DNA of 64,000 bases from Labyrinthula sp. Ha (taxonomy: Eukaryota; Sar; Bigyra; Labyrinthulida; Labyrinthulaceae): contig JAALGZ010000007.1 of NCBI GenBank assembly GCA_015227615.1, forward strand, positions 992,001-1,056,000, written 5' to 3'. Of the stretch, positions 13,348 through 59,092 are shown piece after piece; position 1 is the stretch's first letter; each line of letters starts with the position of its first letter. Made by a program: the position numbers and the translations under genes. The notes under the pieces were generated by a model. That model was not told where the DNA came from, did not search any database, and worked only from the letters and a program-made list of their open reading frames with translations.

Positions 13348-14374
13348 ATGAGTATTGAAAACTCAGAGAAAAACTTTGATGTTGTTTTCATACCATCCTC
13401 ATCTACCTCCCCAATGGAAACTCAGACAATCCTCCAGCCCGAAGGGAAAGCCTTACAAGCCATGACTCAGTTCTGTAACAAACACTTTTCAAAGACCCAA
13501 CTCTCTGCTACCCAGAAAATGAATTTTACCTCAAAACTTTCCAAAGAGAATAAATCTGCCCAAGTTTCAGCGTTAAATCACTTGGCTCAAATTACAACGA
13601 CTGATGTCATTAAGCTTCAACCCAACATTAGTGAAACAAAATTCATAGGGGTAAACATGTATGTGGATGATAAAGGAGTTGCAAAGAATCTCCGTAAAAT
13701 TTGAATTTCCCTTTATTTTAGCACTTAATCAGCGAGCTATGGCCATTGCGCATGCTGCCGGTGTTCCTCAAAATATACATGGAGATGTTTTTATAGCAAA
13801 ACAGTTCGATGATGAAGAAGGATTTAATAGGTTAAATTTTACAGAAAAAGATTTAGATTCTTCACAGACGTGGTTTCAAACAGCAAGGAAAATAAATTCC
13901 AAAAGGAAATCACAAGTGAACAAGAGTCCTTTTACTGACAAAGTGAATACTTTGACCAATTTCAAAGCTAAACTGCTAGAAGTTGTGAAAGAAAAAGGAA
14001 ATAGTTTTGTATCCTCTGGGAAGATAGATAAGGCAATTGCTGAATACAAGAAAGCACATGATGTATTAGACAGAAACCAGGAAAACTTCGACTTTAACAC
14101 CCTTGACAAAGAGTCAAGACTAATCGCGGGATCCATATTTTCGAATGTTGCTCTATGTTACTCAAAACTAAACAAACATGTAGAAGCTAGACTATATGCA
14201 AAGTTAGCTGTTAACTGCAGGCCAAAGTGGTTCAAAGGGTGGGCAAGATTGGCTTCAGCAGAGGCAGCCCTAGAAAACAGCGAGGAAGCTCTTAAGCATG
14301 CTCACCAGGCACTTCTCTATTCTCCAAATAACACACAAATTTTGACATTGATTACTGCCCTGGAAAGTAAATAG
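13348..14374 (+). CDS. TPR-repeat protein, one 28-nt intron
   Basis: Spliced model 13348-13693 joined to 13722-14374 gives 332 residues. The 28-nt intron (13694-13721, GTAAAA...TTTTAG) is needed because removing it joins KNL to PLNQRAMAIAHAAG and bypasses a stop. Residues about 120-165 contain a GDVFIAKQFDDEEGF segment. The last ~135 residues form tetratricopeptide-type helical pairs (EKGNSFVSSGKIDKAIAEY, then ALCYSKLNKHVEARLYAKLA, then EEALKHAHQALLYSPNN). TPRs are protein-interaction scaffolds, often in chaperone adaptors; the partner is unknown. A longer model is possible: ATG at 13162, a 28-nt intron at 13255-13282 and a 26-nt intron at 13341-13366 enter the same frame (376 residues), adding an N-terminus rich in R, L, F and Q that could be a targeting peptide. 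Convergent with the TAF13 gene, 68 bp away. Confidence 0.75.
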
Positions 14375-14442
14375 GCGCCCCAGGAACCTTAATGTACCTA
14401 CCACCTTTAAAATGAAAACAATAGTTGTTCGGTTGGAAGCAA

Positions 14443-14766
14443 CTATGCGCCATCTCTTAAGTTCTGTTTTCTTTGTTTTGTTATTTCCTTAAAATCCTTT
14501 TGCAGTTCAATGACTCTATTTTCTTGCTCAGAATCTCCTCTGGTTCGTAAAACAAACTTCAGTACTTCAGCATCTAAGCTCTTGAGCTTCTCTACATCAC
14601 CTCTTTTCTCTAGGTTTGAACCGAGGGCATCCAAACAGTCATATATCAAAATTTTCATATAATCCTGTGCTAAACCATCCAGCATTTCAGTGGTCTCTTT
14701 TATGTGCGTGGTACATCCACCAAATCCATAAACCATCGAAATAATTTCATCTTCAAAGTTTGTCAT
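14443..14766 (-). CDS. TAF13: TFIID subunit TAF13-like histone-fold protein
   Basis: A 107-residue intronless gene. Residues 4-16 (FEDEIISMVYGFG) match the TAF13 opening FxxDLRxMMYGFGD. They are followed by a histone-fold helix (KETTEMLDGLAQDYMKILIYDCLDAL) and a charged C-terminal helix ending in a basic tail. Family knowledge: TAF13 pairs with TAF11 through the histone fold inside TFIID and contacts TBP, acting in RNA polymerase II initiation in the nucleus. The length is typical of TAF13 (about 110-130 residues), and the start is the only sensible ATG. The gene lies head-to-head with the diphosphatase gene, sharing about 150 bp of upstream DNA, and tail-to-tail with the TPR gene. SPT3 N-terminal domains look similar, but the short length favours TAF13. 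Confidence 0.82.
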   Translation of the reverse strand: MTNFEDEIISMVYGFGGCTTHIKETTEMLDGLAQDYMKILIYDCLDALGSNLEKRGDVEKLKSLDAEVLKFVLRTRGDSEQENRVIELQKDFKEITKQRKQNLRDGA

Positions 14767-14901
14767 TGTATCTTTCCAAAATTTTTGGGCAAAATACAGA
14801 TTTTGGGAAATTTAATATTTACAAATCGCGTGATAGTTTTAAGCGAAAGTTAGGAAAGAGAAGTTAGATAGCTTAGTTGGAGACGATAGACTATCATTTG
14901 C
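14767..14901. promoter_or_regulatory. Shared divergent promoter region
   Basis: The only DNA between the start of the TAF13-like gene (leftward) and the earliest start of the diphosphatase gene (rightward). Both 5' untranslated regions and both core promoters must fit into about 135-155 bp. No clear TATA box or other named element was identified; the function is inferred from position alone. Confidence 0.4.
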
Positions 14902-14919
14902 ATGAACCTGGTTAGAAAA

Positions 14920-16040
14920 ATGGCACAAAATATGCAACAAAAACGTATTTTTAGGTTTGGACTGATATCTGATATTCAAACCGCTGATATAGATGGTTCG
15001 TAGCCTTGTTTGTTTATGTGTAGATGCACCAAACTTTGTAGGAACAGAGATTAGGCATTATAGAGGAGCTCTCGAAGCAGCTAAGCTTGCAGTTCAAGAT
15101 TTTAATCTAGAGGAGGTTGATTTTGTATTGCAGGTAGGAGACATCATTGATGGGCAGAATGCAGGCAACTATGGCCAACTAAAAGGAAAAGAACCTCAAA
15201 GTCACCAAGCTTTCCAAAGGATATTTTCTGTGCTTGATAAGGTACATCCTAAGGCAATGACATATCATTCAGTAGGTGCAATATCTTTTCTGTTTTATCA
15301 TTTTAGGAAATCATGAACTTTACAATTTTAGTTTTACTGAACTCAAGTCTTTGCTAAACAGACCAAACAGGCACAAAATTAGTGAAGGTGATAGATTTTA
15401 CTTTTCTTTTTCTCCTTCACCAGGGTGGAGAATAATTCAGCTTAATGCTTATGAAGTTTCAATTTTGAACCAAGAAAATAAAATAAATTTTGAAGAAGCG
15501 AAACGTGTGATTAAGGAAAATAATCCTAATTGGAAAGTCTTGTTTGCTGCTGAGCTAGAGGGAAAAGATCAGGGCACTGTAAATTATGCAGAGGGTCTTT
15601 CTGGTGGGCAACTTCGTTTTGTTCCTTATAATGGAGGCTTGGGTGAGAAGCAACTTAATTGGTGTAAAACTGAATTAGAAGCTGCTTCAAAAAATAAGGA
15701 GAATGTTATTGTGCTGTCTCATATACCAGTTCATCCTAATTCATCTATAGCAACTTACCGCACTCTTATATTTGATTATGATAAACTACTTCATCTGTTT
15801 CATACAGTTGGAAAGAAGATAGAAGACAGCAAGCAGAGTTGTGTCAAGATAGTGTTTTGTGGCCATGCACACAAAGGTGGTTTTTATGAAGATAAAGAAA
15901 AAGGAATTAATTACATTACCGTACAGTCTCCTTTGGCCAAAGGTCTTTCGCATGGCGTAGTTGACGTGTTTGATGAGAAGGTGTTGATTCGAGGGGTGGG
16001 AAGTTTGCCATCGCGTGAAATAAGTTTGACTAAGCGGTAG
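14920..16040 (+). CDS. Mn-dependent ADP-ribose/CDP-alcohol diphosphatase (ADPRM family), two tiny introns
   Basis: Exons 14920-14995, 15024-15275 and 15307-16040 give 353 residues; the introns are 28 and 31 nt. Splicing restores two family motifs split in the genome: FGLISDIQTADIDDAPNF and HSVGNHELYNFS. The calcineurin-like metallophosphatase motifs appear in order: SDIQ (in place of DxH, usual for this family), VGDIIDG, GNHE, LSHIPVHP and FCGHAHKGG. Family knowledge: these enzymes hydrolyse ADP-ribose, cyclic ADP-ribose and CDP-alcohols with Mn2+, acting in nucleotide or phospholipid-precursor turnover, probably in the cytosol. An in-frame ATG six codons upstream (14902) would add MNLVRK; a stop lies just before it. 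The length matches animal and plant homologues (about 310-350). Divergent from the TAF13-like gene. Confidence 0.9.
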
Positions 16041-19000
16041 TACAGTTTTTTTTCTCAAAGTTTTAGTGGAAGTCTCTGATTGAGTTTTAGGGGACTGTTT
16101 AATGGGGTTCAGTACACGCAACGTTCTGGTTTTTAAGCTTCTGTGATCTTCATCCTATGAAATCTTAAATAAATACATCATGCAAAATCCCTTATTGAGT
16201 GTGAGTTAAGTGAAGAAGAGATTCTTATTAAAATGTAGTAGGGCTGCTCATTTCCTGCGAAACAGGCACGATATTTCAAGCACTTACCGAGGGTACTGTT
16301 TGGTTCATGGAATGTAGACTATACCTAGTTGACCCCTTATTGCAGAACTGGCTTGAATATAACAATATCCAATGAAGAATCCATTCTTTGTGGAAATTCT
16401 GGACCAGCACTTTGACATCAGCGCGGATGTTCCTACGCTTGAAACCTCTTCCAGGAATAAATTTTATAATGATTGGATTGATAGAATTCTATGCGTCTGA
16501 CTATGCGGTATATAGTTATTAGATATACTCCTGTCGGCGGACAGGTGAGAAAGACTCCTCATTTAAACCATAATATTCAGGTTAACAACAAAGAGGTATA
16601 AAGTCTGTACTTAAACAACTTAAGTAGAAAGAAACTGTCTTGGGGTATAGGGAGACTAACTTTGCTATCTTGTTCATTTATTAAAGCTAAAAATAACATT
16701 GGCCCTGCCATGTTACAGCATCGTTGAACTTATGTTTCTAGTATTATTACGGCTTATTTTGTAGAAGTGATACTCAGTTTTAAGGTTCAGGTGTCAAGCT
16801 TGGTTACAGTACATGACCCCAAAACTTTCCATTGCCTCTCAGATTCTCTGTATTATACACACTGCTAGTCATGCTCTAGCGGTTATGTGGGAGTTAATTG
16901 TATGACTTGTTATATAGTCCATATGTAGTTAAAGCATCCTGAAATTTCATGGCTAACTAAGTTAAGTGATAGCAACATATCCAACACCTCGTAAGTCTAA
17001 ACCCATGATCCACGGAAAGCTTAACATTCATTGAAAGTCCACCATCGAGACAGCTTAAAACTTAATGCCAAGAAACATTTAATGTAGTCCTCATAATAAA
17101 GAAACATCGCTAAAGACTTAAATTGCATTAGTCAATATGTTTAACTCTAAGGAGTGATTCACTAAACACGTTGCACATGCTAGCCTACTAATGATCTAAT
17201 GTCAGTGGAAGCTGATCTTCACACTCTAAGGGTTCCACCAACAAAAAATAGTAGTTAAAAGTACCACTCAAAGAAGATTCCAAGCACAAACACCTTGTAG
17301 ACTTCACGTGCTAGACTAAGCATATATTTTGGGCAAAGTGAGAATGTCACAGAAAGGCGTCTGAGAGAGTTTCATTGCATTGAGATACGATTTTAACAGA
17401 TCCGCGGACTATGCGAGCCTTCGTGAAATTTGAACATCCTATGTTCTTTCGATTTATGAATTAGGTCTTACTCAAAATAAACTAAACCCACTAGAGAAAT
17501 TCCACTTCTCAACACCTTTTCTAGCCATTTTACTGATCCAGAAATCCGAATGGAAATGTCTGGAGAGCCTTGAAAAGATTCAAGAAAAGATGATAAACTG
17601 TTAGCCAATTTAAGAGATTAATTCATTTACAGAGACCACCAAATTATCTTCTGGTATAGCTACTGTCGTAGTCTAGCAGCTTGTTTCTAGTCTTTTTTGT
17701 ACCTTTGGAGACACAGACAGGATTCTTGCTACAAAGTTTTCCTTTAATGTCAAAAAAATGCTAGCATTAGCGAGCAACTATGCTCCATACAGTTGTTTTG
17801 GAATACAAACCTGTAAAATTTTCCTAAAGCTACTTGGACACGAGTCTTTAAGGAGACTCCCAAGAGAAAGGAGTTAGTATCAATGGCGGGATTTAGCTTC
17901 CAATTTAATAGAAACCTAAGGCTTCTCGAACATAGCTCAGGTCTATCTAACATAACCAACATTAACGGAAAGATGCTGACCGACACATTAGTTCAATATG
18001 ATCTACAGCTATTAAACATTCATTTCGCCGTAGGAAAAATGGATTCAGGAACTATATACCATATTTTACAAAAGACAGGGACCACAAAAATGAAAATAGG
18101 CTTCGGAATAGCTGATAGACTTGAAATAGTAATAAGCTTGAGAATGAATGAAGGCATTAGTAGAAGAATAAATCGCAAAGCATTTTAAGAATACATCTGC
18201 AGAGAAGCCAAATTCATCCATAGAAGCACAGTATCTTCACCTAACAACTGGGTAAAAATAAACATATTGCCTTTTTAGGAAATTGGAAGGGCCTCCTTTA
18301 TACAAAACTCTTGACATAAAGGATGGTAACCACCTAGACATTTGATTAATTTCCTATTAAGAGTTTGCTAGATCTTTTCAGGAACCGATACAGGTACTAA
18401 TGCCTGAAAGATGACTATTGAACTTCAGAAGATCCGACTACCTGCACGCAAATCGTCTTCTAGAACCAAAAAAAGAGAACATGAAGTTACTTGAGCCAGT
18501 AACAGCGCAAGATAACAAACAGGATTTACAACGTAGCCCTAAGAGATTGCAGGCAATGGATAAATAAATTATACTCATAACTGCAATTGAACTGCGATAA
18601 TAATAACAGAAGAGAAGCTTGAAGGATTATTTAGAAGTTTTATTTAATGAAAGCCATCTACTTAAAACTGATCAAGATCAATGGTGAGTATCGAATTGAC
18701 ATAGGAAAACGCCATAGCATCACGGATAATATATAGTTCTGAACAAAGGATACTAGCAATGTTACTGCAATTATCTAACGCGAGAATAATAGGACAATAT
18801 ACTGGAATCAAGGGAAAAATATATCGAAGAACAATATATCAACACGCTATCATCAACTCCATATAAAATCTAACTCGTTCTCATCACGATAAGGAATAGT
18901 AAACTACCAGTGGAAGATTATTCCCAAAACGAAAAGAAATGAAGGGATTTTTAAGCAACATTACCAAGATTATCAGGCATATATTGAGAATAAATCAACT

Positions 19001-22000
19001 AATTAACTGAGATGAAAAATGGAACGGAAAGATTCGCTTCATGTCTAATGGTAAAGGTGAGAGACGCGGACGGGGAAATGCCTGCCCTGTAACCCTTCTT
19101 AGTACAGCCCCGAGCTCTTGACTAAGCCAGTTAACAAAAATAACAAACACTAATAGATCAACGCTTATGCCAAAAGCAGATTTTGAAAAATGGAGGTCAC
19201 CGCTTTGAAAGATAAACAATTGAAAGAACTCTACACAATAGCGTAACGAAAAATTTGGTTCCTCGTATAATCTTTATCAACTTTAAGAAAGATGTTTTCA
19301 CTCCCTCACGTAAATTTATTAAAGTAGCTATTTTGACAAACAATTTCTCTAAAAGTTTAACAAACAAATTAAATTAACCTTTCATACTAGTAAAATACAT
19401 TGTAATTAATAGGAACTGTATCTTTAAGTATATAAACCAAGCTGAGAAGGTTGTGTAAGATGAATCATTATGATTGAGCTTATTTATCATAGTTTGGAAA
19501 ACTAAAGTTTCCAAACTAAACCAGTATACATATGAAAAATAGTCCACTTTGATGAAGAAATCACTCAACTGTTATTCAGTGCGAATAATATACCTGATTT
19601 AGTATATTGGAACCGTGGGACACTAGTTTTTAAAACTTCTGCGTGTAATTCATCATCCAAAACCAAGAGAAAAGCGTTAATATAAAAGAGAAAGTAAATG
19701 TGATATATTAAGCCCCCAAAAAAGTTACTTACACAATTTTCAGAGGGCACAGCGCTAAAAACACCTCTGTCATTTAGAAAAATGTAGAATACAACTCTCG
19801 CAGCAGTCCAGATCTTTCTCGTGGAACTGATTATAAAAAAAAACGTAAGCAACATCGTTATACATACTAGAAAGATTTTTCTAATTGCTTAGGGAAACTA
19901 CACTCAACATCCCATGGAATGTGTTGGGTTTGAAGGCGTCATATCTATGAAGTATCTTAAACCTATTTTATTGTCGATGGCTTATCAAAATCAGATGTAC
20001 TAGATAAGACTCAAAATCCTGAATATACATTGAGAAATTACCGTGACTCACTTAGATCTGGCCTGCCGAAACGGAACTAAACTATATGTTGTAAGGTCAA
20101 TTATTTTAGGTTCGGTTCATGGTAAATCAGAGATATGGGCTTTGATTAGTAAAGAAAATATAAATCTGAGAAAGAGTCATAAGCAAGTGAAAATCTACGG
20201 AGATAATAATGGTCAAAAATGTTCTCACTAAACAACTATATCTTCCAGGTTGATAGAACTGTTATTGAAAAAATCTCTAACTATAGACAGCGCATCCCGG
20301 CGGTTGCTGCATTAATAATAATAATACCAGGAACTAATTTTGCCATAGAATTTTAGGAAGAACTATAATATCAAGAATAAAAAGTGTCAGTTATGATTGA
20401 ACTAGTAGAGATTCTATATAGACCAATTCAACCAACCCGTTATCTCGGGATATGGCATTCAGGTAGGTCATTACTACATCCAGCCTAACCACAGAAAACA
20501 CAGAGGACTTGAATTAACCTTTATTCTCCTCCGTCGTGTCATCATCTATTCTTTCTTTGCCAAGGAAAATACTGCGAACAAGCTCTAAAGGATCTGAGTA
20601 GGCAAGCTAGATTCTGAATTGTTGATCTTGTGAACCTTATGGAATAAGACATAGAGAGCTTTGAACATCAGGGCACGAAACTTACACCTCCCTTTGCATT
20701 GACATATTTGAAGCCAGTCAGTACGTGTAAGATAATATAGTTGAGAAGAAAAAGGTCAATTAGGTAATATTTTCCACGGCAATAGAGCTCAGTAACAGAA
20801 AAAATAGAGGCAGCAATTTTTTACGAATATATGATACACTCATCAAATAAAACAATGATCTCAAAGCTCACCTTTTACAAAGTGGTCGTGCAATTGATTA
20901 CAGTAGTTTGAAAAGATATAAAAAAAATAGTTAGAAAACACACTCAGCATTGAATACCCGGAATCCATATCACTATATTACCACCTTCAACTGCTTGGAA
21001 CATTTCATATAGGCATACAAGGGGTATTGACCATCTTTCACGATGTTTCACACTTATTTATTTTATTCGCGAGCTTTGGGTGGGTACTTCATATATTTTA
21101 ATAATAGATGCTAGGGGGGTCTAAGTAATAGGATCCTGTTCTGGTGGGACAGGGATACCGATCAAGAGATATACACGAAGCCAGAACAAGCCATAGTGAC
21201 TCTAAGTAAAGAACAAGGAGAACGAGCAATAAAAGACCAAATTCACACGAATCTCATAGTTAATGACAAACGACGATGTAATAACATAAAATAGGTCCAT
21301 CAGTTTCTAGAAAGGTCCCCTCTGGGCTCATAAGGGTTTAGACAATAGTGTCAATGGGTAGTATCATGGAGAATCCATAACAAGTAGATTAAAACTAAAA
21401 AGTACAATAGCAAACTCAAACCTCTTACTCGATCTTGGCCATTCTCAATTCCAAATTTATTTTGAGAGGAGAAAATCGTTTTTCAATGTTCCAATTTTGC
21501 AATAACTCTTCGTTGTTCATTTTATTTTTCTGAGTCATAGTTGCAACCAAAGTGATAAAATTAAATTTTAGAATAAGTGTAAAAAATACTTTATGTCCTA
21601 TATACATAGGGCAAATTAAATGGCACACATTTCGTCAATCTATGTTAGGAATTTCTATTTGGTACTATTTCCTCAGAAAATGGGATGATAGATACAGGTA
21701 TCCAGACAATATTCTCTTAAGGATGTAGTCTAGAAGTCTAGCTTCACTAATTTAAGTCAAGACCCAACCTTGATTGGTTCTCTGAAAAGTGGGGCCAACC
21801 TAAATCCAGCTACTGCCCGAAATAAATGAAAACATAAGTTATCAAACAAGGTACTCTCTCTTCAATGATAAATTATGATGCACAACGCAAGCTTTTCTTA
21901 TCAGCATAAATTCATTCTTTATTGTAGAAGCCAGAATAGACATTCTTAGCCACTGATGATATGAAACACCATTCACATTCTTAAGTGAACATTAGAGTTA

Positions 22001-26764: not shown

Positions 26765-27784
26765 ATGACAGAAAACAATAATCGCAACAACAACTTTCTC
26801 CTGAACGAAGGTATTCTTGTACCCATACAAAACCAAGATTCTAACGGAGAGTTACATTTTTCTGGTCCACCGCAGAAGAAACTGTCCAGGGCTGATCTCG
26901 AGGAAGTTGCAACTAGGTTGATCCACGAAGGGAACGGGGTTTTGACAGAAGCCCAAACAGCAAGTAGGTTGTACCTGGAGGAAATAAGAATTAGATTTGA
27001 AGATGTCCAGAGAAGGTTTGATGACTTTTACAATGCGTACCTTGCGCCCAAGTCCTTCTCTTTTCGAACTGTTAACAACTCCAGTTCGTTCAAATCCAAT
27101 GAAGCCTCTTCAAGTTTCATTAAGAAGAAAAACATCACCGATGTAGCGCTAGGCTTTTTCGGAAAACCGGTTATAAAAACAAATTTAAAGGCAGAGTTTT
27201 TAGATACAAGAACAGAACTCGCTAGAGCCTACCCAGATCTATTAATAAAGAGCCAACGTGTAGAAAAACGAAAACTGCGTCATGGTTCTATTTGTGGGAT
27301 ATTTAATCCTTTGACAGGGGAAGTCGAATGGAAGCAAAGGAGCAATGGAGGTTGCTTTGGAGTGTGGAACCCTCTTAAGGAAAGAATAGAGTGGAGGCAA
27401 AATATCAACCGCGCCGTTTGTGGTGTTTGGAATCCAGATATGGAACAGATCGAGTGGAAAGATCGGTTTGGGGGAGGTATTTGTGGAGTTTGGCATCCTA
27501 TTAAAAGAAAAATTTATTGGAACACAACAACAAGGGGTGGCATTTGCGGAGTATGGAACCCCTACAGTGAAGAGATTGAATGGAGAACAGAAAAAGATGC
27601 AGGAGTTTGTGGATATTTTTCTCCAAGTTATGGTGGCGTTGAGTGGATCGTAGAACCAGATTCTGGTGTTTGTTGTGTCATAAAAAATCCAGAAGGTAAT
27701 GGATACATAACAAGTTGCAGTAACTTACCTAGGGCAACTGGGTTTGTGGGTAGAATGGATCTGTCAGATGATACTGAAAATTAG
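26765..27784 (+). CDS. Protein with seven 21-residue CGVWNP repeats, unknown function
   Basis: A 339-residue intronless gene. Residues about 1-55 are polar. Residues about 45-95 are predicted helical and charged (LEEVATRLIHEG, then YLEEIRIRFEDVQRRFDDFY). A Ser/Phe-rich linker follows, and residues 176-322 are seven back-to-back units of exactly 21 residues with consensus (I/V)CGVWNPxxxxIEWxxxxxGG. Units 1-6 keep the NP/HP/SP turn and the xxW tryptophan; unit 7 is degenerate. I do not recognise the family. The Gly/Trp/aromatic spacing suggests short beta-hairpins, as in MORN or WG repeats, but the spacing and the Cys are not theirs. No signal peptide or membrane segment is seen. The start is the first ATG of the frame, followed by an Asn-rich stretch. 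A surface or scaffold role is possible but unsupported. Confidence 0.85.
   Translation: MTENNNRNNNFLLNEGILVPIQNQDSNGELHFSGPPQKKLSRADLEEVATRLIHEGNGVLTEAQTASRLYLEEIRIRFEDVQRRFDDFYNAYLAPKSFSFRTVNNSSSFKSNEASSSFIKKKNITDVALGFFGKPVIKTNLKAEFLDTRTELARAYPDLLIKSQRVEKRKLRHGSICGIFNPLTGEVEWKQRSNGGCFGVWNPLKERIEWRQNINRAVCGVWNPDMEQIEWKDRFGGGICGVWHPIKRKIYWNTTTRGGICGVWNPYSEEIEWRTEKDAGVCGYFSPSYGGVEWIVEPDSGVCCVIKNPEGNGYITSCSNLPRATGFVGRMDLSDDTEN
27290..27730 (+). repeat. Seven tandem 63-bp coding units (CGVWNP repeat)
   Basis: Seven in-frame 63-bp units encode the 21-residue repeat of the gene at 26765-27784. There is no insertion or deletion between units, while the DNA of the units has diverged considerably, so the array is old and held in phase by selection on the protein. 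Confidence 0.9.
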
Positions 27785-42634: not shown

Positions 42635-43489
42635 CTATACATGGACATTTCCTGCAAGAATGTTCAAAATATCAGCTGGAAACTCTATTTTCTGTTCAAA
42701 GCTAAGCTTCTTCAGCGTCCCATTTTTTTCCAAACTCTTTTCCAACTTCTTCCAAAATTCCTCATTTAACAGTTCAAAAGAATGTTTAGCCCTAAAGTAA
42801 AATGAAACAAACTGTGTACAATGTCAATCTTGCAAGTGTTTTTGAGACCTTTCCATGAAGCAGCGTAAATAAAGTTCTTTCAAAAACCTTTAAACTCTCA
42901 TGAACATTCCAAATAGAAACCACATTCAGTCCTTCATGTTCCGATATTGCTTGTGCAATAAATTTTACAGCATAGTCATCCATATTGCAATAAATCCTAA
43001 ATTGATTATAGTTTAGAAAGTACTCTATATGCTTTAGGTTTGGTTGCACGTTCAAAATTCTGGGAATAAACTTGTAATCTGGAATAGTAACCTCTTCTCC
43101 CACACTAACATAATAAAAGTTAAAAAAAAAAATCTACATAATCTGCTTTAACTCAATTTGATTCAGTACCTCTACCGCATTTGACAACCCGCCATGATGA
43201 AAACTAAAATGATACGAGGAATTACAAGCTTACACAAATCCTATTAACTTCGTGCATCTTCTCACAGCAGCTACAATTTCGCTTGGTTTTCTCTGGGAAT
43301 CCCAATAGTGAAACCTAGGAAATAATCCAACACTTAAAGAGATACATTATATGTTCAACTTGGTCTAGTTCCTCTGTCTCAGTACAAAACTTGTCAAAAT
43401 CATCCTTGAACCTTATCATACATAGTTTTTCTAAGGATAAAAGAAGTCTTCTATTTACTATTTTGTGAATATGAAGGAGGGGAAAACAT
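42635..43489 (-). CDS. Orphan six-exon gene, possibly leucine-rich-repeat-like
   Basis: Six exons (43489-43459, 43430-43346, 43314-43234, 43203-43138, 43104-42820, 42791-42635) separated by introns of 28, 31, 30, 33 and 28 nt, all GT...AG, give an uninterrupted 234-residue protein beginning MFSPPSYSQN and ending LAGNVHV. Every junction keeps the frame, and each intron would stop or shift it if retained. Leucine/isoleucine spacing in VRRCTKLIGFVFHHGG, VQPNLKHIEYFLNY and EKNGTLKKLSFEQ suggests a leucine-rich-repeat-like solenoid, but no unit fits the canonical LxxLxLxxN consensus well. No signal peptide or membrane span is seen. I do not recognise the family. Just upstream (43549-43567) lies a doubled TAACCGTTAACC motif. 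Confidence 0.72.
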
Positions 43490-45081: not shown

Positions 45082-46164
45082 ATGGGGAAAGAGTGTTTTG
45101 AGGTTAATAATTTAGGACCCTGTGGATTTGGTGGTACATGTGAGATAACAGATCTAAACGAGACAAATGGTTTAGATGAAGTTTGTCGATGCTTCAAAGG
45201 GTGGCGACAATCCAAGGAGATGGCGATTTTCTTTTTAGATGAACAAGACATTGGAGAGGAAGGAATCGCTCTTTGTCAAGAACACGTACTTGCAACACAA
45301 TCAATTTATTGTTTGATACTGTTGACCACAATAATTGCTCTTGGATCACAGTTTTTGTCTCTCAGAAAAAAACAACAAATACTTCGGATTTGGCCCTTTC
45401 TTCTTGGAAACTTACTTCAAATTAGTTTTGCTGTGTATAAGTTAGTTGATCCGGTGGATGCTGTACTTGGGTTGAATCTGAGGTTTACATTCCTAGTGGC
45501 AAACTCAATACTCTTTTTTCTTATATCAATGATAATATTTTTTGAGAAGTATATTTCATATATAATTCGCTGTACCATGATGAGAACCCATGGCATAATT
45601 AAAGCGGCCCAGCAACATAGAAAACAAACACCTGTTGTTATTGTGTATGATATCTTGATCTGCCAGGCATTATGGTGTGCTGGCTTTTTAACACGGCCGC
45701 AAAATTATGCAGCTATAAGAATCGTTTTCTCGTTGTTCATTCTCAGAATTGTATATACTGGTGTTTTATTATATGTTTTATATGGGATTTTGATAAAAGA
45801 TATGAAAATGTTTCTGTCATTGGAAGTTCCCACTACTGCCGCCTCAGTAAGAAATGAGGAAAGAGAAGAAAAGAGACGCATTGTGTCAAAAACTGTAGTT
45901 CGAATTATTGTTCTTAGAAGAATTTCTATGTGTTTGGTCATCTTCTGTTTCTTTTTCTGGTTTCTACCCTCAGTTTTTGACATTTTGCTGTATTACTTTG
46001 GGTACTCTTTCACAATGGTAATGCTAATCTGGAATATTATTTCTATTACTTCAATAAGAGCTCGTGCAGTCAAGCTTAAGAAAAAAGGCAAATCTGCACT
46101 TAGACAAACAAAACTTCTAAAAACTAGTTCCCAGCAGGATGAACACACAGCTATCAGAGTTTAG
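45082..46164 (+). CDS. Cys-rich N-terminus seven-transmembrane protein, paralogue A
   Basis: A 360-residue intronless gene. Residues 1-65 hold six cysteines (5, 14, 20, 35, 37, 65) with an EGF-like ending CxCFKGW and a possible N-glycosylation site (NET at 26-28). Seven hydrophobic segments follow at about 68-92, 101-122, 128-156, 182-203, 210-236, 270-297 and 303-325, then a basic, Ser/Thr-containing tail. The topology fits a receptor-like protein with the Cys-rich part outside and the basic tail inside. No classical GPCR signature (DRY, NPxxY) is visible and I cannot assign a class. No signal peptide precedes the Cys-rich region. The neighbour at 48047-49120 shares the same cysteine pattern and topology, so the pair arose by duplication. 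Ligand and signalling route are unknown. Confidence 0.82.
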   Translation: MGKECFEVNNLGPCGFGGTCEITDLNETNGLDEVCRCFKGWRQSKEMAIFFLDEQDIGEEGIALCQEHVLATQSIYCLILLTTIIALGSQFLSLRKKQQILRIWPFLLGNLLQISFAVYKLVDPVDAVLGLNLRFTFLVANSILFFLISMIIFFEKYISYIIRCTMMRTHGIIKAAQQHRKQTPVVIVYDILICQALWCAGFLTRPQNYAAIRIVFSLFILRIVYTGVLLYVLYGILIKDMKMFLSLEVPTTAASVRNEEREEKRRIVSKTVVRIIVLRRISMCLVIFCFFFWFLPSVFDILLYYFGYSFTMVMLIWNIISITSIRARAVKLKKKGKSALRQTKLLKTSSQQDEHTAIRV

Positions 46165-48046: not shown

Positions 48047-49120
48047 ATGTGTGAAACTTTTAGTGGAAATATTTGTGGTTTAGGTACTTGTGAGTTAAAT
48101 ATATCAACACAAGAAGAATTCTGCAGCTGTTTTGGTAGTTGGGAAAGTTCGCCAGAATTGACTTTCCAATTTGGTTCTGGTCTAAACAAAACTGCTTTCG
48201 CATGTATAAGAAATTCTGGTGCGTTATTTTCTATCTGGTCTTTAACTTTCCTCATTACAATTTCAGGGTTAACTTTACATCTATCTTCAATGAGGAGACC
48301 TTCTCAATTAAAACGAGCTTTACCTTACATTCTCTTTGTTTCCAGTGGTGCCACAATATCAGTCCTGCGAGTTGTTGATGCACTTTCTCAAAATACTCGT
48401 TTCCCATTAGGTGTTGATCTTTGGGTCAATCTCTTAACAGCACTTTCTTTTTTTACTCTTTCAATGTCTCACGCTATATTTAATTACAAATTTTTAAGTT
48501 CACAGTATAAGACTTTACATGTGAAAGGAAATGTTTTTGTTCTTAAGCTTCGAGCTGTTCAATATATTTCATATTTATTATGGGTAGTTAGTGCAATACT
48601 TTCAGTGTGTCTTGCGTGTATAAATTTAGTAAACAAAGATAAAAAAGAACTATTTTTTAGAGCTGTGAATTTACTATCTGGAGTATCAATTATTTCACAT
48701 GGTCTTTTATTATTTGTAGGTGCAACTTTTTTACTTGGAGATTACAAAACAATTATTGAGTTTTCTAATGTGGAAAGTGAAAGAGTGAGAATAACAAAAA
48801 TAGCAAGAAATATAAAAAAGACAAGAAATTGTACTATGTTGAGTTGTATTCTCAATGGTGCATTATTAGCATCAATTTTCTTTTCTGAAGTTGCTCTGAG
48901 AGTATTTCAATATACTTATGCTATCTTTTTCATATCTTCTGTTTCTGCAACAATGATAAATTTGTATTATTTTAAGAAGAACTTGAAACTTAGACATCCA
49001 CCTTCTCACATAAATAATGGTTCGAGTGGTGCGAAAAAACTTTATTCAAAGAGTAATAGACATTTAACAACCTGGCAAGCAGATAAAGGAAACTTGACTT
49101 CTGAGAGGATTCATACTTAA
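48047..49120 (+). CDS. Cys-rich N-terminus seven-transmembrane protein, paralogue B
   Basis: A 357-residue intronless gene. Cysteines at 2, 10, 15, 26, 28 and 53 reproduce the spacing of paralogue A, again ending in CxCF..W, and NKT (47-49) and NIS (18-20) are possible glycosylation sites. Seven hydrophobic segments follow at about 56-80, 90-108, 122-145, 170-192, 203-228, 262-285 and 290-310, then a polar tail. Identity to A is low outside the cysteine frame, so the duplication is old. The first cysteine is residue 2, so the true start may be upstream: the frame is open back to 48017 but has no earlier ATG and no visible signal-peptide exon. It ends 76 bp from the convergent eIF3j gene. Receptor-like role inferred only. 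Confidence 0.8.
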   Translation: MCETFSGNICGLGTCELNISTQEEFCSCFGSWESSPELTFQFGSGLNKTAFACIRNSGALFSIWSLTFLITISGLTLHLSSMRRPSQLKRALPYILFVSSGATISVLRVVDALSQNTRFPLGVDLWVNLLTALSFFTLSMSHAIFNYKFLSSQYKTLHVKGNVFVLKLRAVQYISYLLWVVSAILSVCLACINLVNKDKKELFFRAVNLLSGVSIISHGLLLFVGATFLLGDYKTIIEFSNVESERVRITKIARNIKKTRNCTMLSCILNGALLASIFFSEVALRVFQYTYAIFFISSVSATMINLYYFKKNLKLRHPPSHINNGSSGAKKLYSKSNRHLTTWQADKGNLTSERIHT

Positions 49121-49196: not shown

Positions 49197-50077
49197 CTAC
49201 ATAAAGTCATCGTACTGATCGTAATCAGCATATTTATCGTATCCTCCTCCTGCACTGTCTCCTAACACTCCACCACGTTCCATTTTAATTGTAGGTTTAC
49301 CTGCTTTCTTCTTTTTTTTGGTTAACGTTTTTTTCACTTTGGTGTTCTTCACTACAGCTAAAACATTTTCCACCTCAGCTAAATCCTCGTAGTTCATAAT
49401 TCGGCCTGCATGTCGGACAATGTCTTTCATAAATTCTTTCACATCTTTATCCTTTCCATCTAACTCTATTCTTTTAGCTACTGCTTCTGCAAAGTTTTTA
49501 TAATCCTTGAACTTTTTTAGGTCGAAGCGATTAAGCACTGAAAGGAATCCATCGACAGATGTGTCTAAGATTGGCTTGGCTCCAACGTTTCTTGTATGGT
49601 TCGTTCCTTCGTTGTCTTCCGTGCCCATGTTTGATCCAGATATCCCACCTGAAAAAAGCTCTTCGGTTAGTTTATTATCTTGCTCTTCAACTAACTTTTG
49701 AATGCGCAACTTTTCTGCCATTTTTTCTTCCTCTGTTAATGCTTCAGACTTTAAAGCCGCTTCCTCTTCTAATCTTCGTATTTCTTCTTTCTGTTTCTCT
49801 ATCTCTTTTTTGGATTTCTATTTAAAAATAACAATAATTCATACTTTCTTAGCAACTATTCTTTGTGTTTTATTTGGGTTGCTACGTGGCTGTTCAAAAA
49901 CCTCATCTTTGTCTGACTCCACTACTTCCTGGTCGTCATCAGAAAAGGCAGGTTGGTTATTACTATCTTCCTGCACGTCACTACAGATATAAAGAAACAT
50001 TTTTGACATACTCCGGCACATCCCACTCATCGTCCTCTAAATATTAAGAAAAATAAAATTATTCTACCCCACGACAT
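49197..50077 (-). CDS. EIF3J: Translation initiation factor eIF3 subunit J, three tiny introns
   Basis: Exons 50077-50068, 50036-50012, 49980-49845 and 49817-49197 (introns 31, 31 and 27 nt) give 263 residues, very near the human 258. The spliced start MSWEDDEWDVPDD matches the acidic, Trp-rich opening of eIF3j; the first exon is only 10 nt. The middle has a Lys/Glu coiled coil (KKEIEKQKEEIRRLEEE), a FLSVLNRFDLKKFKDYKNFAEAV segment matches the family core, and the end has the basic KKTLTKKKKKAGKPTIKMERGG stretch followed by the acidic, aromatic tail YDQYDDFM. Family knowledge: eIF3j binds the 40S decoding centre and helps recruit and recycle subunits in the cytosol. The second intron starts with GTATGT. 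Convergent with 7TM paralogue B. Confidence 0.9.
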
Positions 50078-53000: not shown

Positions 53001-55554
53001 TTCTATCAGAACACATTTCGTTTATAATATTCTTCAGATTCTCATTTCCGCTCATACCGGTCAGCAATATCTTACACTTATGACATAAACTTGATCAGGT
53101 ATGCTTTAGAAACAATAAATTTTCTTTAGATCTTAATAAATATGCTATCACTAATATCATTTTTTAAGCACCAATGCCAATGGATCGAGGATTCAAGAAT
53201 AGGGTAAGAGTACTAAATCTTCTCAAAAATTATTCTTAGCAGGATCACCCTCTTTGTCCAAAGATTCGATTCAAAATCAATCATCATACTTGAACATTAG
53301 GCATTTCTGCGCCTGTTTCAGAACTTGATTATGTTGCTTATAATGTTTCTATGCCATCGCTCCTGTCTTACTTCATCTCATGCTTAAAGAATTTCTTGGA
53401 GTAGATTTTATGGTAGATTCCTGAAAACCTTGCAAATTAAGACCCAGATATTGCAGTTCCTGATATTCTGAATTTAAAATGAGACAGGAAAATCGAAATG
53501 AAACTGCTTCAGAAATGTGAAATCAAAAAGTACTAGTTAATACAAAATCATTCAGAATCATTCTGCCAAAGAACATAGTTTCATCACAACAGTTTATGCT
53601 AAGTTTAACCTAGCATGGTCCTACAGTAAGAAGTAAACTTTAACATATAAAAAAATTCTTTAGGGTATAGAGCGTATCCTCAGTCTTCTAAGAAAAAAAT
53701 ATAATTTATTAATCAAGATAGGATTCCTTCTTAGTTTTCAAATAGCGAAGAATCTCATGAGCATATCTTAAGCTAAAGCTATTAACTACGAAGAGGACTT
53801 ATTGCTATGTTCCATCTGCAAGTTTTGAGAAAAGTAAATTTCTCGTTTAATCTTAGTGAAAATTAGCGTTCCTTTAGCGAAAGACGCCATAGACCCTAGA
53901 TATGAGCTCTGTCCTTTTGAAATGAATACTACAACTGGCGGATCATTGTGTATTATTAATATTTTGCCACTCCAATTTGTGCCTGAAACTTTTTTTTTTC
54001 GGTTTTAATAGCTCCACACCTAGTTTGATAGTATATTTACTAGTAACTAATAACAAGAAGAAAAACAAAAATATTTGATATGAATCAAAAACTCTTTTTT
54101 TTTGTTAATATCCAGAACAAAATGAATAATTTTTTGATTATTGATAAGTCTCATCAGAATGTTTAAATAATTTTGGCAAGAATACGCCAAGGCCATATGG
54201 AACAAAAACTCCCTCAATATAAATTCATGTAGCGATTTTACCAGGAGATAAAAGTTTCGTTCAACCTTGGTTACATTTATTTCTTAGCATGCAACTTTAG
54301 ACTTGATCGTGAAACGTAAGCTCATAGTTTTGTAGGGCAAGAGCTTCTATCTACAAAAGTTGTTTCTTTTAGCCATTTTTTGATTATGATGTTTCAATAA
54401 TAGAACCTTCAAATAGTGAAGTTTGCTTTATAAAAACATCTTACGCTAAAGTTTCTCACAGTTGATCCCTACATAATACGGAAGAATGTCTTATTACAGA
54501 GGGTTATACTTAGATCAGATATGTTTCGTTTCTTCAGAAGCAAAACTATGAAGTAACTTAATTGAACTGAGGCTTCTCAAAGATATGAACAATTGGCTAG
54601 TTATCCTTTAGATCTGTACTTAATTGAATATCTTCTATTCTTTGAAGACAGGTCCGGTTATTACAGAGTTATGTTTTTTAGCTTCTTATTATCACCGCGA
54701 GTTTTGCCGGGTGGCAATGGAGGAAAGATGACTGGGCCCTCCACGAGTTTGGAAACTAAATGGAGTTTTCTGTGTGATCTGAGAAAAACTTGATGAAGCA
54801 AGATGAAGCTCGAAACTAGGATTATAGTAAAAGCAGGGAGCTTGCATTGGGTTTATAATGTAGGTGGATGGTGATATTATAGCAATACTTACTAAAACCT
54901 CTTGCTAAAGTGTATGCCTTATATTAAGATCAAGTTTTAACATCTATTTTAGAGCTCCTTGTTAGTTTAAAAAAACAAACGGAGAGTTTAATATAGGCTT
55001 GAGGGAACTTCCTAAAATGGAGGTTTACCTTGACTTCCAAAGGCTTCTTGTCCTAGAGATAAGATTTCTCCTAGTTCGGCATCATTTCAGGTTGAAAATG
55101 TGCTTTGAATCATTTTGGAACTTAGCTAGCAGTATCACTAACACGCTGGACAGAAACAAAGCTGAAAATGTTGATTAAAAAAGCTTGACTTTATATTTGT
55201 TAGCCAGATACGTCTCGGGTGAAGATATCTTATGATAATTACCTTCCAACCTCTATTCAGTAAAACATTTTTTATTCAGGATGTATTCTGATTTATTAAT
55301 AAGTTACCTTCAAATTTGTTATCTTAATTTTTTCTTATTGATAATCACGAAAATTTGAAAAACTGCTTCGATTGATTATTAATTTTTAATAACAAATCCA
55401 TCCCTTTTAAAGGCACAATAGTAAATCGGCATATCATGCATTAACGTAACGGCAAGCGAAACTCAAACGATATATTCCCGATTAACTCAATACAGCGTTT
55501 CCCTGGAAACCTATAGGATAGACATCAGCATAATATCGGTGTCACAATCGTAAC
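50078..55554. other. Gene desert
   Basis: About 5.5 kb without a supported gene. A run of ten G preceded by seven T lies at 51483-51499, striking in such AT-rich DNA. A short frame at 54593-54793 shows no domain. No RNA gene was recognised. Confidence 0.6.
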
Positions 55555-57336
55555 TTGACTATGAAACATGAAAAGGTTGTATCCGAAGTTCAAGAAGGAT
55601 ACTTTCAATTGGTCTCCGCTATGCTACATAATGTAGATATCAACACGATATTCTATGTAGAACAATTTGAGATACTTCACGAGTTACTTGAAGATGTGAA
55701 AAAGATTATGAAAGAACAGGATGTACGACTTTATACTCATGACAAGTTTTCGCACGACTTAATTTCTTGCTTGTCTGAATTTTTCAGAATATATTTAGTT
55801 GAGTTTGATATCCCTGAAAATAATAAGAAACTTTCAGTTGTTAGAAGGCTTCGTGCATATTCTCAATCTCAGTTTCTCAAGACGCACTTAATCTCCTTAT
55901 TTCGTAAGTTAACAACCAGTTTGCTAACAGTTGATAAATTTCAGAATAATAAAGCTTTGGTAAAAAAAATAAGGGATTTAACTGAAGAGTTCTCTACCTT
56001 TTATGAAGAAGATATGCATACTGCTTTCACTAAGGATTTACTTCGTTATCATTATTTATACCCTGAAAGTGACTTGAGCCAATATATCGGTAAACAACCA
56101 CAAGTTTTTGCTGATCTTATGATATTGCCAAAATCATCAGATAAATTTTATGAACATCAAAATTCATATATGAGAAACTACTCTGGGTATATTTTTGAGG
56201 AGAGATGGTTTGAACTATTATCAGATTCATTACCTTCCCAACAAATTAAAGTAGATCTGCGAAAACCTTTGATAACAGGTATATTTTCGCAAACTATGTT
56301 TCCTGCTTTGTTTAAAACAGGAGACAAAGTTAAACCGGCTACTATATTTATTACACGAACTACTGATGCTTCGCGGTTACCTTCAACCGTACGTGGAGAA
56401 TTTGCATACAAACTTCAAACAGCAATTAAAGAGAAGAACTTTTTACAGAATGATTTTCGCGACTCTTTATTTTCGGCAAAAGAGAATTCAGATCATTTAC
56501 TACACTTGTATGGGTTTGGTTCAATCAGTGAAAAAGGCAACTTTTTAATTGTTGAGAGCGTATTCTGTTCTCTTCAGGAAGTTATGGTTCTCCCTGAGGT
56601 TGAAAATCCAGAATCTTTTTTTAAGACTCTTATAGATGAAAACAAAAATTTCAGAAATCTTGGTTTTGAAGAAGCTCTTTGTTGTTTTTATGAGTTAGCT
56701 TTAGGTCTCTCCCATCTTCATGAGTCCTTTCAAATCCACGGGTTTTTAACTTCAGCAAGTGTATTTATTGTTGCGAAACAAACATCTTCCGGACTTAAAA
56801 AGACCATTAAGTTAAATGAGCACACTCTTAAGTTAGGACTGAATAATCATGAGGGCTTTAATACTAGGAATCTACTTCATGAACTGCCATGGTGGAAAAT
56901 AGCAACTGTTCCTCCTGATATAGTACAGGCAACTATAAACACACAGGCCTCTGATATTTACTCGTATGCAATGTTATTTTACAATGCACTATCCTCCTGT
57001 TTTCCGTATAGTGATGTGCTAAAAGCTATCGAAAAAAAGGTTACACCAACTTTAAGAAAGAGAAAAGAATATATGTTTAAAGCTCCTCAGGTCATAAGGA
57101 ATGAAATGCTACTTAGACATATAATGAAAGGAAACAAACCAAATATGAATTTTTTAAATAAAGGAAAATCAGAAACTCATGGAAAGAAAGTGGTAGGTCT
57201 TATAGAGTCTTGCTTGAATAAAGAGCCTCATGAAAGAGCCTATACTACAGAAACAGTTGAATGGTTAGACGAAATACTAACAGATCTTAAGATTAACAAG
57301 GCCCAAGTAATGAGTAGGATTGGTGAGAATTTTTAA
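55555..57336 (+). CDS. Pseudokinase with N-terminal helical region
   Basis: A 593-residue intronless gene. Residues 1-185 are strongly helical and charged, resembling a helical bundle. Residues about 250-580 align to a protein kinase fold: LLHLYGFGSI and FLIVESVFCSLQEV (hinge), ALCCFYELALGLSHLHES (helix E), IHGFLTSASVFIV where the catalytic loop HRDxxxxNxxx should be, KLGL where DFG should be, VPPDIV for APE, and SDIYSYAMLFYNALS for the helix F DxWSxG, whose Asp is kept. No glycine-rich loop and no clear VAIK lysine are seen, so catalysis is very unlikely. Family knowledge: pseudokinases usually act as allosteric partners or scaffolds, and a helical domain before a pseudokinase recalls MLKL-type architecture. 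Convergent with an Ste20-like kinase, 91 bp between stops. Confidence 0.78.
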   Translation: MTMKHEKVVSEVQEGYFQLVSAMLHNVDINTIFYVEQFEILHELLEDVKKIMKEQDVRLYTHDKFSHDLISCLSEFFRIYLVEFDIPENNKKLSVVRRLRAYSQSQFLKTHLISLFRKLTTSLLTVDKFQNNKALVKKIRDLTEEFSTFYEEDMHTAFTKDLLRYHYLYPESDLSQYIGKQPQVFADLMILPKSSDKFYEHQNSYMRNYSGYIFEERWFELLSDSLPSQQIKVDLRKPLITGIFSQTMFPALFKTGDKVKPATIFITRTTDASRLPSTVRGEFAYKLQTAIKEKNFLQNDFRDSLFSAKENSDHLLHLYGFGSISEKGNFLIVESVFCSLQEVMVLPEVENPESFFKTLIDENKNFRNLGFEEALCCFYELALGLSHLHESFQIHGFLTSASVFIVAKQTSSGLKKTIKLNEHTLKLGLNNHEGFNTRNLLHELPWWKIATVPPDIVQATINTQASDIYSYAMLFYNALSSCFPYSDVLKAIEKKVTPTLRKRKEYMFKAPQVIRNEMLLRHIMKGNKPNMNFLNKGKSETHGKKVVGLIESCLNKEPHERAYTTETVEWLDEILTDLKINKAQVMSRIGENF

Positions 57337-57427
57337 TTTATACTGCAGTTTAGCTTGATATTGAATACTATTATATTATCCCTTAGTACTGAGCACAACA
57401 TATGGTTACAGAATACGATTAAATCCT

Positions 57428-59092
57428 TTATAGTTGTTGTTTTTCCAAACCTCTCAAACGCTGCAAGATTTTTTCAGCTCTATCTATGGCTTCTTTACTT
57501 GCTTTACCCTTCTTCAACTGCGAAACGTTAATCTCATAATCTTTTTCAGGCCGCAAAAAAGAACCTCTTAAATTCCTAGCACCAGCGTAGATGCTTCTTC
57601 TGTATGCATGAGCCTGTAGACTTTGTTTTCTTTCTGCTGGATTAGATGCCATGCTTCCAATCCTAGTTTTCCTACCAAGTCTCGATCTGTGATCTTTAGT
57701 TAAGTGTTTAGGTTTCATTGTACCCTTTGGTCTTTTCAACTTTGTATTTCCTTTATTCCTTCTTCTTAACCTTTTCAACATAGCTTCCTTTTCCTCTTTT
57801 TCAAACTCATTAATAACAGTTTCATTGATGGCTATAGAGTTTACCGAACTTTTTTTCTTAGCCTTCTTTCTAGCAATTTTATTTTGCCTATTTGAAACTA
57901 TAAAATCATCCTCATCACTGTCCTCTTCACTAGAAAAATCTTCTGAATCAGAGCCAACCTCAACTTCTCCATCTTCAATGCCCTCTTCTTCATCGGGAAA
58001 TTCACCTTCTCCATATTCAAAATCAAAATCATCATCCTCAAGTCCATTACGAAACTGCTGAACATCCTCTAAACATACTTCTGCTAATTTTTTCAAAATA
58101 GCATGCTCTCCTTTATGTGCTTTTTTAACTTCGTTGATGACAAATTCATGAGCTAGCATACTATGACTACTCTTTCTCTCCTCTGGGTCTTTTTGACATA
58201 AAGCGCTAAGAAAAGATCTCAAAGCCCCTGTGTATTGTCTAGGATTAGAAAACATAGGAGCTGCTCTTTTTGGAATTAGAGAAATCACGTTGATAGGAGG
58301 AACATCTTCAAAGGGAGGATGACCTTCAACAAGCTCAAACAGAGTAATTCCCAAGGACCTAATATGTAATTTTCTATGAAAGATATACCATACATCACAC
58401 TTTTGAGTAATTTCATCTCCAGACAAAATTTCAGGCGCCATCCAATGAGGTGACCTAGGAGTCAACTACAAAACTTTTGTTACCCTGAAACCGTGCCGCG
58501 ATTTTGGTTTACATTTGTCACACTCGCTGCTACTCCAAAATCTGCCAACTTTACCTCACCCTTAAGCGTTAGAAGAATATTTTTCGCTTTAATATCTTGA
58601 TGCACCAAACCTAACATGCATGAGTCAAGAAATCTATTTATACCTTTGCTGTGCACGTAACTTAGTCCAAGGAGGGATCTTGCAAATAGAGCAGCCAGTT
58701 CAGATTCAGTAAAAACATGTTCACAAACTAACATAATTCCTTCAAGACTTCCTAGTTCAGCAAGTTCCATAACGATCCAAATATTTTGATTCTCTTCCTC
58801 AAACCAAGTTCCGTAGTAGCTGATAACAAAATCAGATTTAAATTGATCAAGAAAAGTTATTTCACTCTTCAGTTCACCTAGAAACTCTTCACTAAACTCC
58901 ATTACTTTAATAGCAACTTCTTCATCATTTTTAGAATTAATTCTCTTCCCTCTCCAAACCTAGAATAATATAAGAAGTATGGGATACAGCTCCAAATGCA
59001 CCTTCATCAAGACAGGCTTCCAGTTTGAATTTTGTTTTTGGATCACCAGTACTCCAAGGTAAAGCATCACGAAGTTTTATTGGGGCTGACAT
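57428..59092 (-). CDS. Ste20/MST-like protein kinase, four tiny introns
   Basis: Exons 59092-58988, 58959-58644, 58610-58484, 58454-58389 and 58358-57428 (introns 28, 33, 29 and 30 nt) give 514 residues. Splicing rebuilds DEGAFGAVWRGK (glycine loop), VAIKVMEF, HSKGLVHQDIKAKNILL, LADFGVAA, GSPHWMAPEIL and KCDVWSLGITLFELVEGHPPF. IKAKNILL, GSPxWMAPE and the PPINVISLIP segment are typical of the GCK/MST branch. The catalytic loop is HQD, not HRD; Asp, Lys and Asn are kept, so activity is likely. After the kinase domain comes a Glu/Asp/Ser-rich stretch (about residues 305-365) and a Lys/Arg-rich tail. Family knowledge: MST-type kinases act in stress, polarity and Hippo-like pathways; no SARAH domain is evident. 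Two introns are multiples of three with no in-frame stop. Confidence 0.88.

What the first reader, a model, noticed from the sequence alone, without database searches (positions are those of the whole stretch)
13694..58960. A genome with introns of only 27-33 nt
Sixteen introns were needed to restore family-consistent frames in five genes (TPR, ADPRM-like, mL43, eIF3j, Ste20-like kinase) and one orphan. Lengths are 27 (1), 28 (6), 29 (1), 30 (2), 31 (4) and 33 (2). All start GT and end AG, most begin GTA and end TTAG or ATAG. No longer intron was needed anywhere. Introns this short leave almost no room between branch point and splice sites and are known from only a few lineages. The splice sites in ADPRM, eIF3j, mL43 and the kinase rest on conserved residues on both sides.
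Basis: partly seen in the sequence, partly recalled or inferred. Interest (0 to 1): 0.8.

Follow-up and report, generated by a model that had tools for sequence, protein, structure and literature searches.

The report
Protist genome with ~30-base introns
A slime-net-related protist removes introns of only about 27-34 bases from its genes, and the splicing RNA that reads the start of introns carries a rare one-letter change that may go with this.

Summary
The window lies in a 50.8-Mb nuclear genome, and 11 introns of 27-33 nt, all GT-AG, sit in the five named genes. For ADPRM the protein spliced by hand (28- and 31-nt introns) is 100% identical to a public EukProt/MAKER model with three exons, whose quality string gives full transcript support for its splice sites (field meaning recalled). 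An ab initio decoder without length preference recovers 7 of the 11. In 7-nt length windows from 13 to 306 nt, only 27-33 gives GTA...TAG introns in bulk (40 of 84, against 3-16% elsewhere). Kinase, ARFRP1-like and ThrRS genes elsewhere add introns of 28-34 nt, one GC-AG. A ThrRS tree makes the organism a deep relative of thraustochytrids (Stramenopiles). Introns this short are a known kind (Blastocystis mode 30, Paramecium 25, Stentor 15-16). What may be new: the one U6 snRNA gene found reads AUAGAGA instead of ACAGAGA in the 5'-splice-site box. U1 and the U2 branch-site element are canonical, U4 has co-varied with U6, and intron position +5 is mostly a purine (A 12, G 7 of 25) rather than G. 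I read this as U2-type splicing under tight intron definition with a co-adapted U6/5' splice site; the co-adaptation is inferred.

The parts
13694..13721 (+). 28-nt GT-AG intron, TPR-protein gene
   Evidence: joins two frames; found by flat-length decoder; 5' exon has no family match, so frame evidence only
14996..15023 (+). 28-nt intron 1, ADPRM-like gene
   Evidence: spliced protein 100% identical over 359 aa to EukProt MAKER model with 3 exons; flat-length decoder
15276..15306 (+). 31-nt intron 2, ADPRM-like gene
   Evidence: as above; restores GNHELYNF, present in homologues P0003, P0004 and P0025
30185..30212 (+). 28-nt intron, mL43 gene
   Evidence: joins exon 1 to an L51_S25_CI-B8 match that is below Pfam's cut-off (20.3 of 26.6 bits); decoder, missed by the flat-length decoder; exon-1 similarity recalled
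50037..50067 (-). 31-nt intron 1, eIF3j gene
   Evidence: missed by the flat-length decoder
49981..50011 (-). 31-nt intron 2, eIF3j gene
49818..49844 (-). 27-nt intron 3, eIF3j gene
   Evidence: abuts the eIF3_subunit match of exon 4
58960..58987 (-). 28-nt intron 1, Ste20-like kinase
   Evidence: gives EGAFGAVWRGK (glycine loop, recalled motif)
58611..58643 (-). 33-nt intron 2, Ste20-like kinase, in frame without a stop
   Evidence: read through, it gives an 11-residue insertion before the HxD motif against MST1; not called by the decoders
58455..58483 (-). 29-nt intron 3, Ste20-like kinase
   Evidence: joins Pkinase profile pieces 19-152 and 160-263
58359..58388 (-). 30-nt intron 4, Ste20-like kinase, in frame without a stop
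   Evidence: restores KCDVWSLGITLFEL (motif recalled); not called by the decoders
42792..43345 (-). orphan with 4 decoder introns (43315-43345, 43204-43233, 43105-43137, 42792-42819)
   Evidence: only; gene score 13, no homologue tested

Best explanation
The organism is a deep-branching relative of the thraustochytrids (labyrinthulomycete side of the Stramenopiles). Its genes carry U2-type introns of about 27-34 nt. The spliceosome most likely recognises each intron as one compact unit (intron definition): donor GTA, mostly with a purine at +5, a T-rich middle, a weak branch site whose A lies roughly 6-10 nt before the 3' end, and TAG at the end. U1 pairs with the donor through its canonical 5' end, and U2 offers the canonical GUAGUA. 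The donor is then handed to a U6 whose box reads AUAGAGA; the U at the place of the usual C (human C42) can pair with A or wobble with G at +5, which matches the purine preference there. Shown: the introns, their size, the matching public model for ADPRM, the snRNA sequences, and U4/U6 co-variation. Inferred: intron definition, branch-site position, and the link between the U6 change and +5. The confidence given is for the tiny U2-type introns; for the U6 link alone I give 0.42.
For: ADPRM model 100% identical, 3 exons, QI 114/1/1/1/0.5/0.33/3/6... Kinase insertion against MST1. Nine introns of 28-33 nt in 7 kinase loci; four of 30-34 nt in an ARFRP1-like gene; ThrRS 31-nt GT-AG intron shared with the MAKER model, and a 30-nt GC-AG intron that makes ThrRS colinear with its relatives. 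Length-window control. 25 GT-AG introns: TAG 24 of 25, +3 A 23 of 25, +5 purine 19 of 25 against 20 of 50 at +4 and +6 (Fisher p=0.003), G at +5 in 7 of 25. U1 5' end AUACUUACCUG, U2 GUGUAGUA, U4 present. U6 box AUAGAGA in the one gene found by profile, and by a 21-letter pattern with up to 3 mismatches. Own U4 with own U6 -26.7 kcal/mol, own U4 with Rfam-consensus U6 -14.1, consensus U4 with own U6 -13.1, both consensus -33.4. SF1, U2AF2-like, METTL16-family (CNPPF motif) and SNRNP27 (YMNR) proteins found.
Against: Only ADPRM has full RNA-level support, and I saw its MAKER string, not reads; for ThrRS the same field is 0.5. The 25-intron set was partly chosen by eye from displays filtered for A/T content (and, for the 9 kinase introns, for A at +3 and Y at -3), which inflates +3 and -3 and slightly favours A at +5; one of the 25 (TPR) rests on frame only. 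In the wider decoder set +5 is A 19, T 10, G 6, C 5 of 40, a weaker purine excess. Stentor and the B. natans nucleomorph have tiny introns with a conserved ACAGAGA, so weak donors need no U6 change. The branch-site motif beat shuffles only modestly (3 of 200 as high) and was written after looking at the sequences. U5 was not found. The U6 profile search scored 48 of 6155 first-look candidates.
Confidence: 0.9

Rival explanations
1. The segments are sequencing or assembly indels, pseudogene decay or programmed frameshifts, not introns.
For: The window also holds retroelement-like frames with sub-threshold matches, and the decoder joins frames with spurious 'introns' at any length.
Against: Shared GTA...T-rich...TAG anatomy only at 27-33 nt; same-size insertions inside kinase domains; public MAKER model with exactly these ADPRM junctions.
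Confidence: 0.03
2. Tiny introns are real, but the U6 change is neutral or an assembly error and +5 simply lost its G, as in other tiny-intron lineages.
For: A single U6 copy, no reads seen; Stentor and B. natans nucleomorph keep ACAGAGA; U1, which also pairs with +5, is canonical here; +5 is only 25 of 40 purine in the decoder set.
Against: U6 co-varies with U4; +5 is the only position among +4 to +9 that is mainly purine (19 of 25, others 8-11).
Confidence: 0.45
3. The genome also has ordinary long introns, and the sample is biased to short ones because these can be read through.
For: Only about 0.35 Mb read; the 7 kinase loci were chosen because the domain held stops (6) or was broken (1). 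Of the 84 flat-length decoder introns 57 are longer than 34 nt, and I re-read only some of these.
Against: In the genes checked by homology no longer intron was needed. The decoder introns of 41, 47, 55 and 96 nt that I re-read contain a 27-32-nt GT-AG or a 30-nt GC-AG alternative. No other length window shows GTA...TAG enrichment.
Confidence: 0.15

Closest known systems
Blastocystis (Bigyra, Stramenopiles) introns
   Same: Modal intron length 30 bp, mostly GT-AG with about 0.5% GC-AG (PMC5608401, passages)
   Different: Blastocystis ST1 is intron-rich (35,412 introns in 16.5 Mb) and has minor-type introns; here introns look sparser in a 50.8-Mb genome (84 decoder introns, many spurious, in 314 kb). 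I saw no Blastocystis U6 sequence.
Paramecium and Nyctotherus ultra-short introns
   Same: About 25 bp, unimodal in Paramecium (PMC5014332, passages)
   Different: Ciliates, not stramenopiles; Paramecium's genetic code differs (recalled)
Stentor coeruleus 15-16-nt introns; Bigelowiella nucleomorph 18-21-nt introns
   Same: Tiny introns; all snRNAs reported present (PMC9505925, abstract start and passages; PMC6461891, passages)
   Different: Even shorter; both keep ACAGAGA in U6
Mikrocytos and Paramikrocytos (Rhizaria)
   Same: Very short introns (PMC11069148, passages)
   Different: Only few introns, reduced parasites
Cyanidioschyzon merolae U6 box variant
   Same: A natural change in the U6 ACAGA box (PMC10581693, passage)
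   Different: There the central A is U, and U1 is lost (PMC11732430, passage); here the C is U and U1 is canonical

Membership tests
U2-type spliceosomal introns | GT-AG (or GC-AG) ends | tested here: met
   25 GT-AG, 1 GC-AG by colinearity
U2-type spliceosomal introns | U1, U2, U4, U5, U6 snRNAs in the genome | tested here: inconclusive
   U1, U2, U4, U6 found; U5 not found by the Rfam model, which rang in no control either
U2-type spliceosomal introns | Excision shown in RNA | tested here: inconclusive
   MAKER quality strings for ADPRM (1) and ThrRS (0.5) only; reads not available
Ultra-short-intron genomes | Narrow length peak below about 35 nt | tested here: met
Ultra-short-intron genomes | No long introns genome-wide | not tested
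   only about 0.35 Mb could be fetched
Labyrinthulomycetes | Groups with thraustochytrids in a gene tree | tested here: met
   one gene, ThrRS, 27 rows: sister to the clade of the three named thraustochytrids, joint support 99/98
Labyrinthulomycetes | 18S rRNA placement | not tested
   the 18S search did not complete
Canonical eukaryotic U6 | ACAGAGA box | tested here: not met
   AUAGAGA, the one gene found
Canonical eukaryotic U6 | AGC triad region and pairing with U4 | tested here: met
   GAUUAGCAUGGCC kept; U4/U6 pairing

The most novel reading that the evidence does not exclude
A natural spliceosome in which the 5'-splice-site box of the only U6 gene has changed from ACAGAGA to AUAGAGA, and the whole intron population has shifted from G to purine (A>G) at +5 in step with it, while U1 stays canonical and METTL16 and SNRNP27 are kept, all in a genome of 27-34-nt introns.
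Probability: 0.42. Interest if true: 0.82.

Novelty: new variant of a known kind. Interest (0 to 1): 0.58.

Why it matters
Tiny introns set a lower bound on what a spliceosome needs, and this adds a stramenopile with a fairly large, gene-sparse genome, so shortness need not come from genome compaction. The U6 change matters more. The ACAGA box was 100% conserved in 240 species surveyed (230 yeasts and 10 outgroups; PMC10581693, passages). A natural C-to-U variant with a matching +5 preference would be a ready-made test of whether U6, rather than U1, sets the +5 base, and of whether METTL16 still methylates a changed target.

Tried and rejected
Genome-wide pattern count of GTA-N21-TTAG: no excess over the reversed pattern, uninformative at this composition. 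Raw decoder intron counts per length window: not discriminating, replaced by the GTA...TAG share (its coding model came from the run). Idea that the organism is a dicyemid, orthonectid or apicomplexan (recalled candidates): not pursued; an ASADH-like gene recognised by eye and the ThrRS tree point to stramenopiles. Literature: searches listed no paper on this genome or on AUAGAGA in U6. Most of these were capped listings (one search showed 15 of 190, 20 of 383), and subscription papers are not held, so this is no proof of absence from print. Two stramenopile genome papers (PMC8163842, PMC6050695; word search of main text) do not contain the word intron. U6 box elsewhere: 0 matches in viral contigs, 1 in genome contigs (a bacterial MAG record whose match reads ACAGAGA, probably eukaryotic contamination). 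ThrRS tree: 27 of the 120 listed hits used; P0123 (labelled Strigamia, second by bits but 47% identical, 1324 aa) was left out.

Full report
Setting. The window is G000:C121:992001-1056000 of a 50,840,425-base, 153-contig genome, G+C 34%, with no tRNA found. Pfam shows ordinary eukaryotic genes: Metallophos (ADPRM), eIF3 subunit, protein kinases, a proteasome alpha subunit and TPR over their cut-offs; L51_S25_CI-B8 (mL43) and TFIID-18kDa under theirs; and sub-threshold retroelement pieces.

The claimed introns. I located 11 introns in the five named genes, at the coordinates given or implied: lengths 27 (1), 28 (4), 29 (1), 30 (1), 31 (3), 33 (1), all GT-AG. Four decoder introns in an orphan on the minus strand bring the tally to 15 of the 16 claimed. 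Evidence differs by gene. ADPRM is strongest: the hand-spliced 359-aa protein is identical over its full length to EukProt P0002, a MAKER model whose quality string begins QI:114/1/1/1/0.5/0.33/3/6. As I recall that format, this means 3 exons with all splice sites confirmed by transcript alignments. For the Ste20-like kinase, reading the 33-nt intron through gives an 11-residue insertion before the HxD motif against MST1, and its 29-nt intron joins two Pkinase profile pieces. The TPR intron rests on frame only. For mL43 and eIF3j the upstream-exon similarity is recalled, with profile matches only downstream.

Unbiased checks. I wrote a small gene decoder (coding log-odds, GT and AG required, intron length flat from 12 to 600). 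On 314 kb (C1:100001-300000 and C121:942001-1056000) it gave 84 introns after four rounds with learned splice-site weights: 22 at 27-33 nt, 5 shorter, 57 longer and scattered up to 600. It recovered 7 of the 11 window introns. A sharper control decodes in 7-nt length windows with no splice-site weights. GTA...TAG makes up 40 of 84 distinct introns at 27-33 nt and 3-16% in the 22 other windows from 13-19 to 300-306. The T content inside is 0.43 at 27-33 nt against 0.31-0.38, and the total score is highest at 27-33. Against this, raw intron counts do not peak there, and a fixed genome-wide pattern shows no excess.

Other genes. A Pkinase search gave 132 matches (120 of 320 first-look candidates scored), 11 with in-frame stops inside the domain. 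They show 9 introns of 28-33 nt that restore kinase sequence, found by eye with a display filter on +3, -3 and A/T content. An ARFRP1-like gene next to SNRNP27 has introns of 30, 31, 30 and 34 nt (gene name and exon joins by recalled similarity). ThrRS has a 31-nt GT-AG intron and, by colinearity with its relatives, a 30-nt GC-AG intron. The public model of the latter instead keeps eight extra residues and skips six bases (P0122), which I read as an annotation artefact.

Signals. Over 25 GT-AG introns (11 window, 9 kinase, 4 ARFRP1-like, 1 ThrRS): lengths 27-34; +3 A in 23; TAG in 24, CAG in 1; inner T 57%; +5 A 12, G 7, C 3, T 3. Purine at +5 is 19 of 25, against 11, 9, 8, 10 and 11 of 25 at +4, +6, +7, +8 and +9. 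In the 40 decoder introns the excess is weaker (25 of 40 at +5, 18 at +4, 12 at +6). A branch-site-like YTNAY most often puts its A 6-10 nt before the 3' end, but the test is weak and partly circular.

Machinery. U2 has 3 copies and U1 has 3 (66.2 bits, just under the Rfam cut-off of 69.5), with U4 and U3 beside U1. The U1 5' end AUACUUACCUG and U2 GUGUAGUA are canonical. One U6 gene was found; no second copy showed up by profile or by ANAGAGAAGATTAGCATGGCC with up to three mismatches (this gene, plus one 3-mismatch site on C1 that lacks the rest of U6 by eye). Its box is AUAGAGA. U6 and U4 have changed together, so it is very probably the working gene. A METTL16-family protein (CNPPF), SNRNP27 (YMNR), SF1 and a U2AF2-like protein (250 bits, below the family's curated 310) are present. 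U5 was not detected, which shows nothing by itself. I therefore see no clear sign of a reduced spliceosome, but I tested few proteins.

Lineage. ThrRS's nearest named thraustochytrids are Hondaea, Aurantiochytrium and Mucochytrium at 56-58%. In a 27-row tree the organism and three metagenome proteins form a clade (100/98) that is sister to the clade holding these thraustochytrids (joint support 99/98). This is one gene. An 18S check could not be run. Two more EukProt models match this genome at 98-99%, so the organism or a very near one is in EukProt; its name was not shown.

Known or new. Introns near 30 nt are known in Blastocystis (mode 30) and about 25 in Paramecium and Nyctotherus; shorter ones are known in Stentor and in nucleomorphs. 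The length finding is thus a new member of a known kind, from a labyrinthulomycete relative for which the listings I saw show no printed account. The U6 box is the surprising part. A survey of 240 species found the ACAGA box fully conserved, and the paper names C. merolae (central A to U) as a case outside it (PMC10581693, passages). Stentor and the B. natans nucleomorph keep ACAGAGA. The methylated A43 faces intron +4, so its neighbour C42 faces +5; a U there would accept A or G, which is what most of the introns show. I put the causal reading at about 0.42, because one gene copy was found, no reads were seen, and the intron set is small.

Noticed in passing
L024:1501-1609 (-), i.e. G000:C46:223545-223653: The one U6 snRNA gene found has AUAGAGA in place of ACAGAGA and a changed U4-pairing region that is matched by U4.
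   Followed up: yes
G000:C96:200293-222920 and C135:72694-77477 (L001-L003, L030-L032): U1, U4, U3 and U2 genes lie in a cluster present as two opposed copies on C96 and a third copy on C135.
   Followed up: partly
P0122 (ThrRS) and P0001 (window 48047-49117): The public MAKER models appear to misplace or invent introns: 6 bases skipped in ThrRS, 6 residues missing from a single-frame gene.
   Followed up: partly
window 45082-46164 and 48047-49120 (+): Two nearby proteins that look related by eye, with an N-terminal Cys-rich EGF-like piece and several hydrophobic segments; no Pfam match for the first, and the second finds only a 98% identical EukProt model among 5.8 billion proteins.
   Followed up: partly
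window 26765-27784 (+): Protein with six or seven repeats of a CGVWNP....IEW-like motif and no Pfam match.
   Followed up: no
window 946-3205 (-): Retroelement-like frames: rve and RVT_1 matches below cut-off.
   Followed up: no
G000:C1:144640-149723 and 155997-161091: Two similar large decoder genes in opposite orientation with nearly the same decoder introns.
   Followed up: no
G000:C1:214025-216479 (ThrRS): A 30-nt GC-AG intron inferred by colinearity, so the tiny-intron class is not strictly GT-AG.
   Followed up: yes
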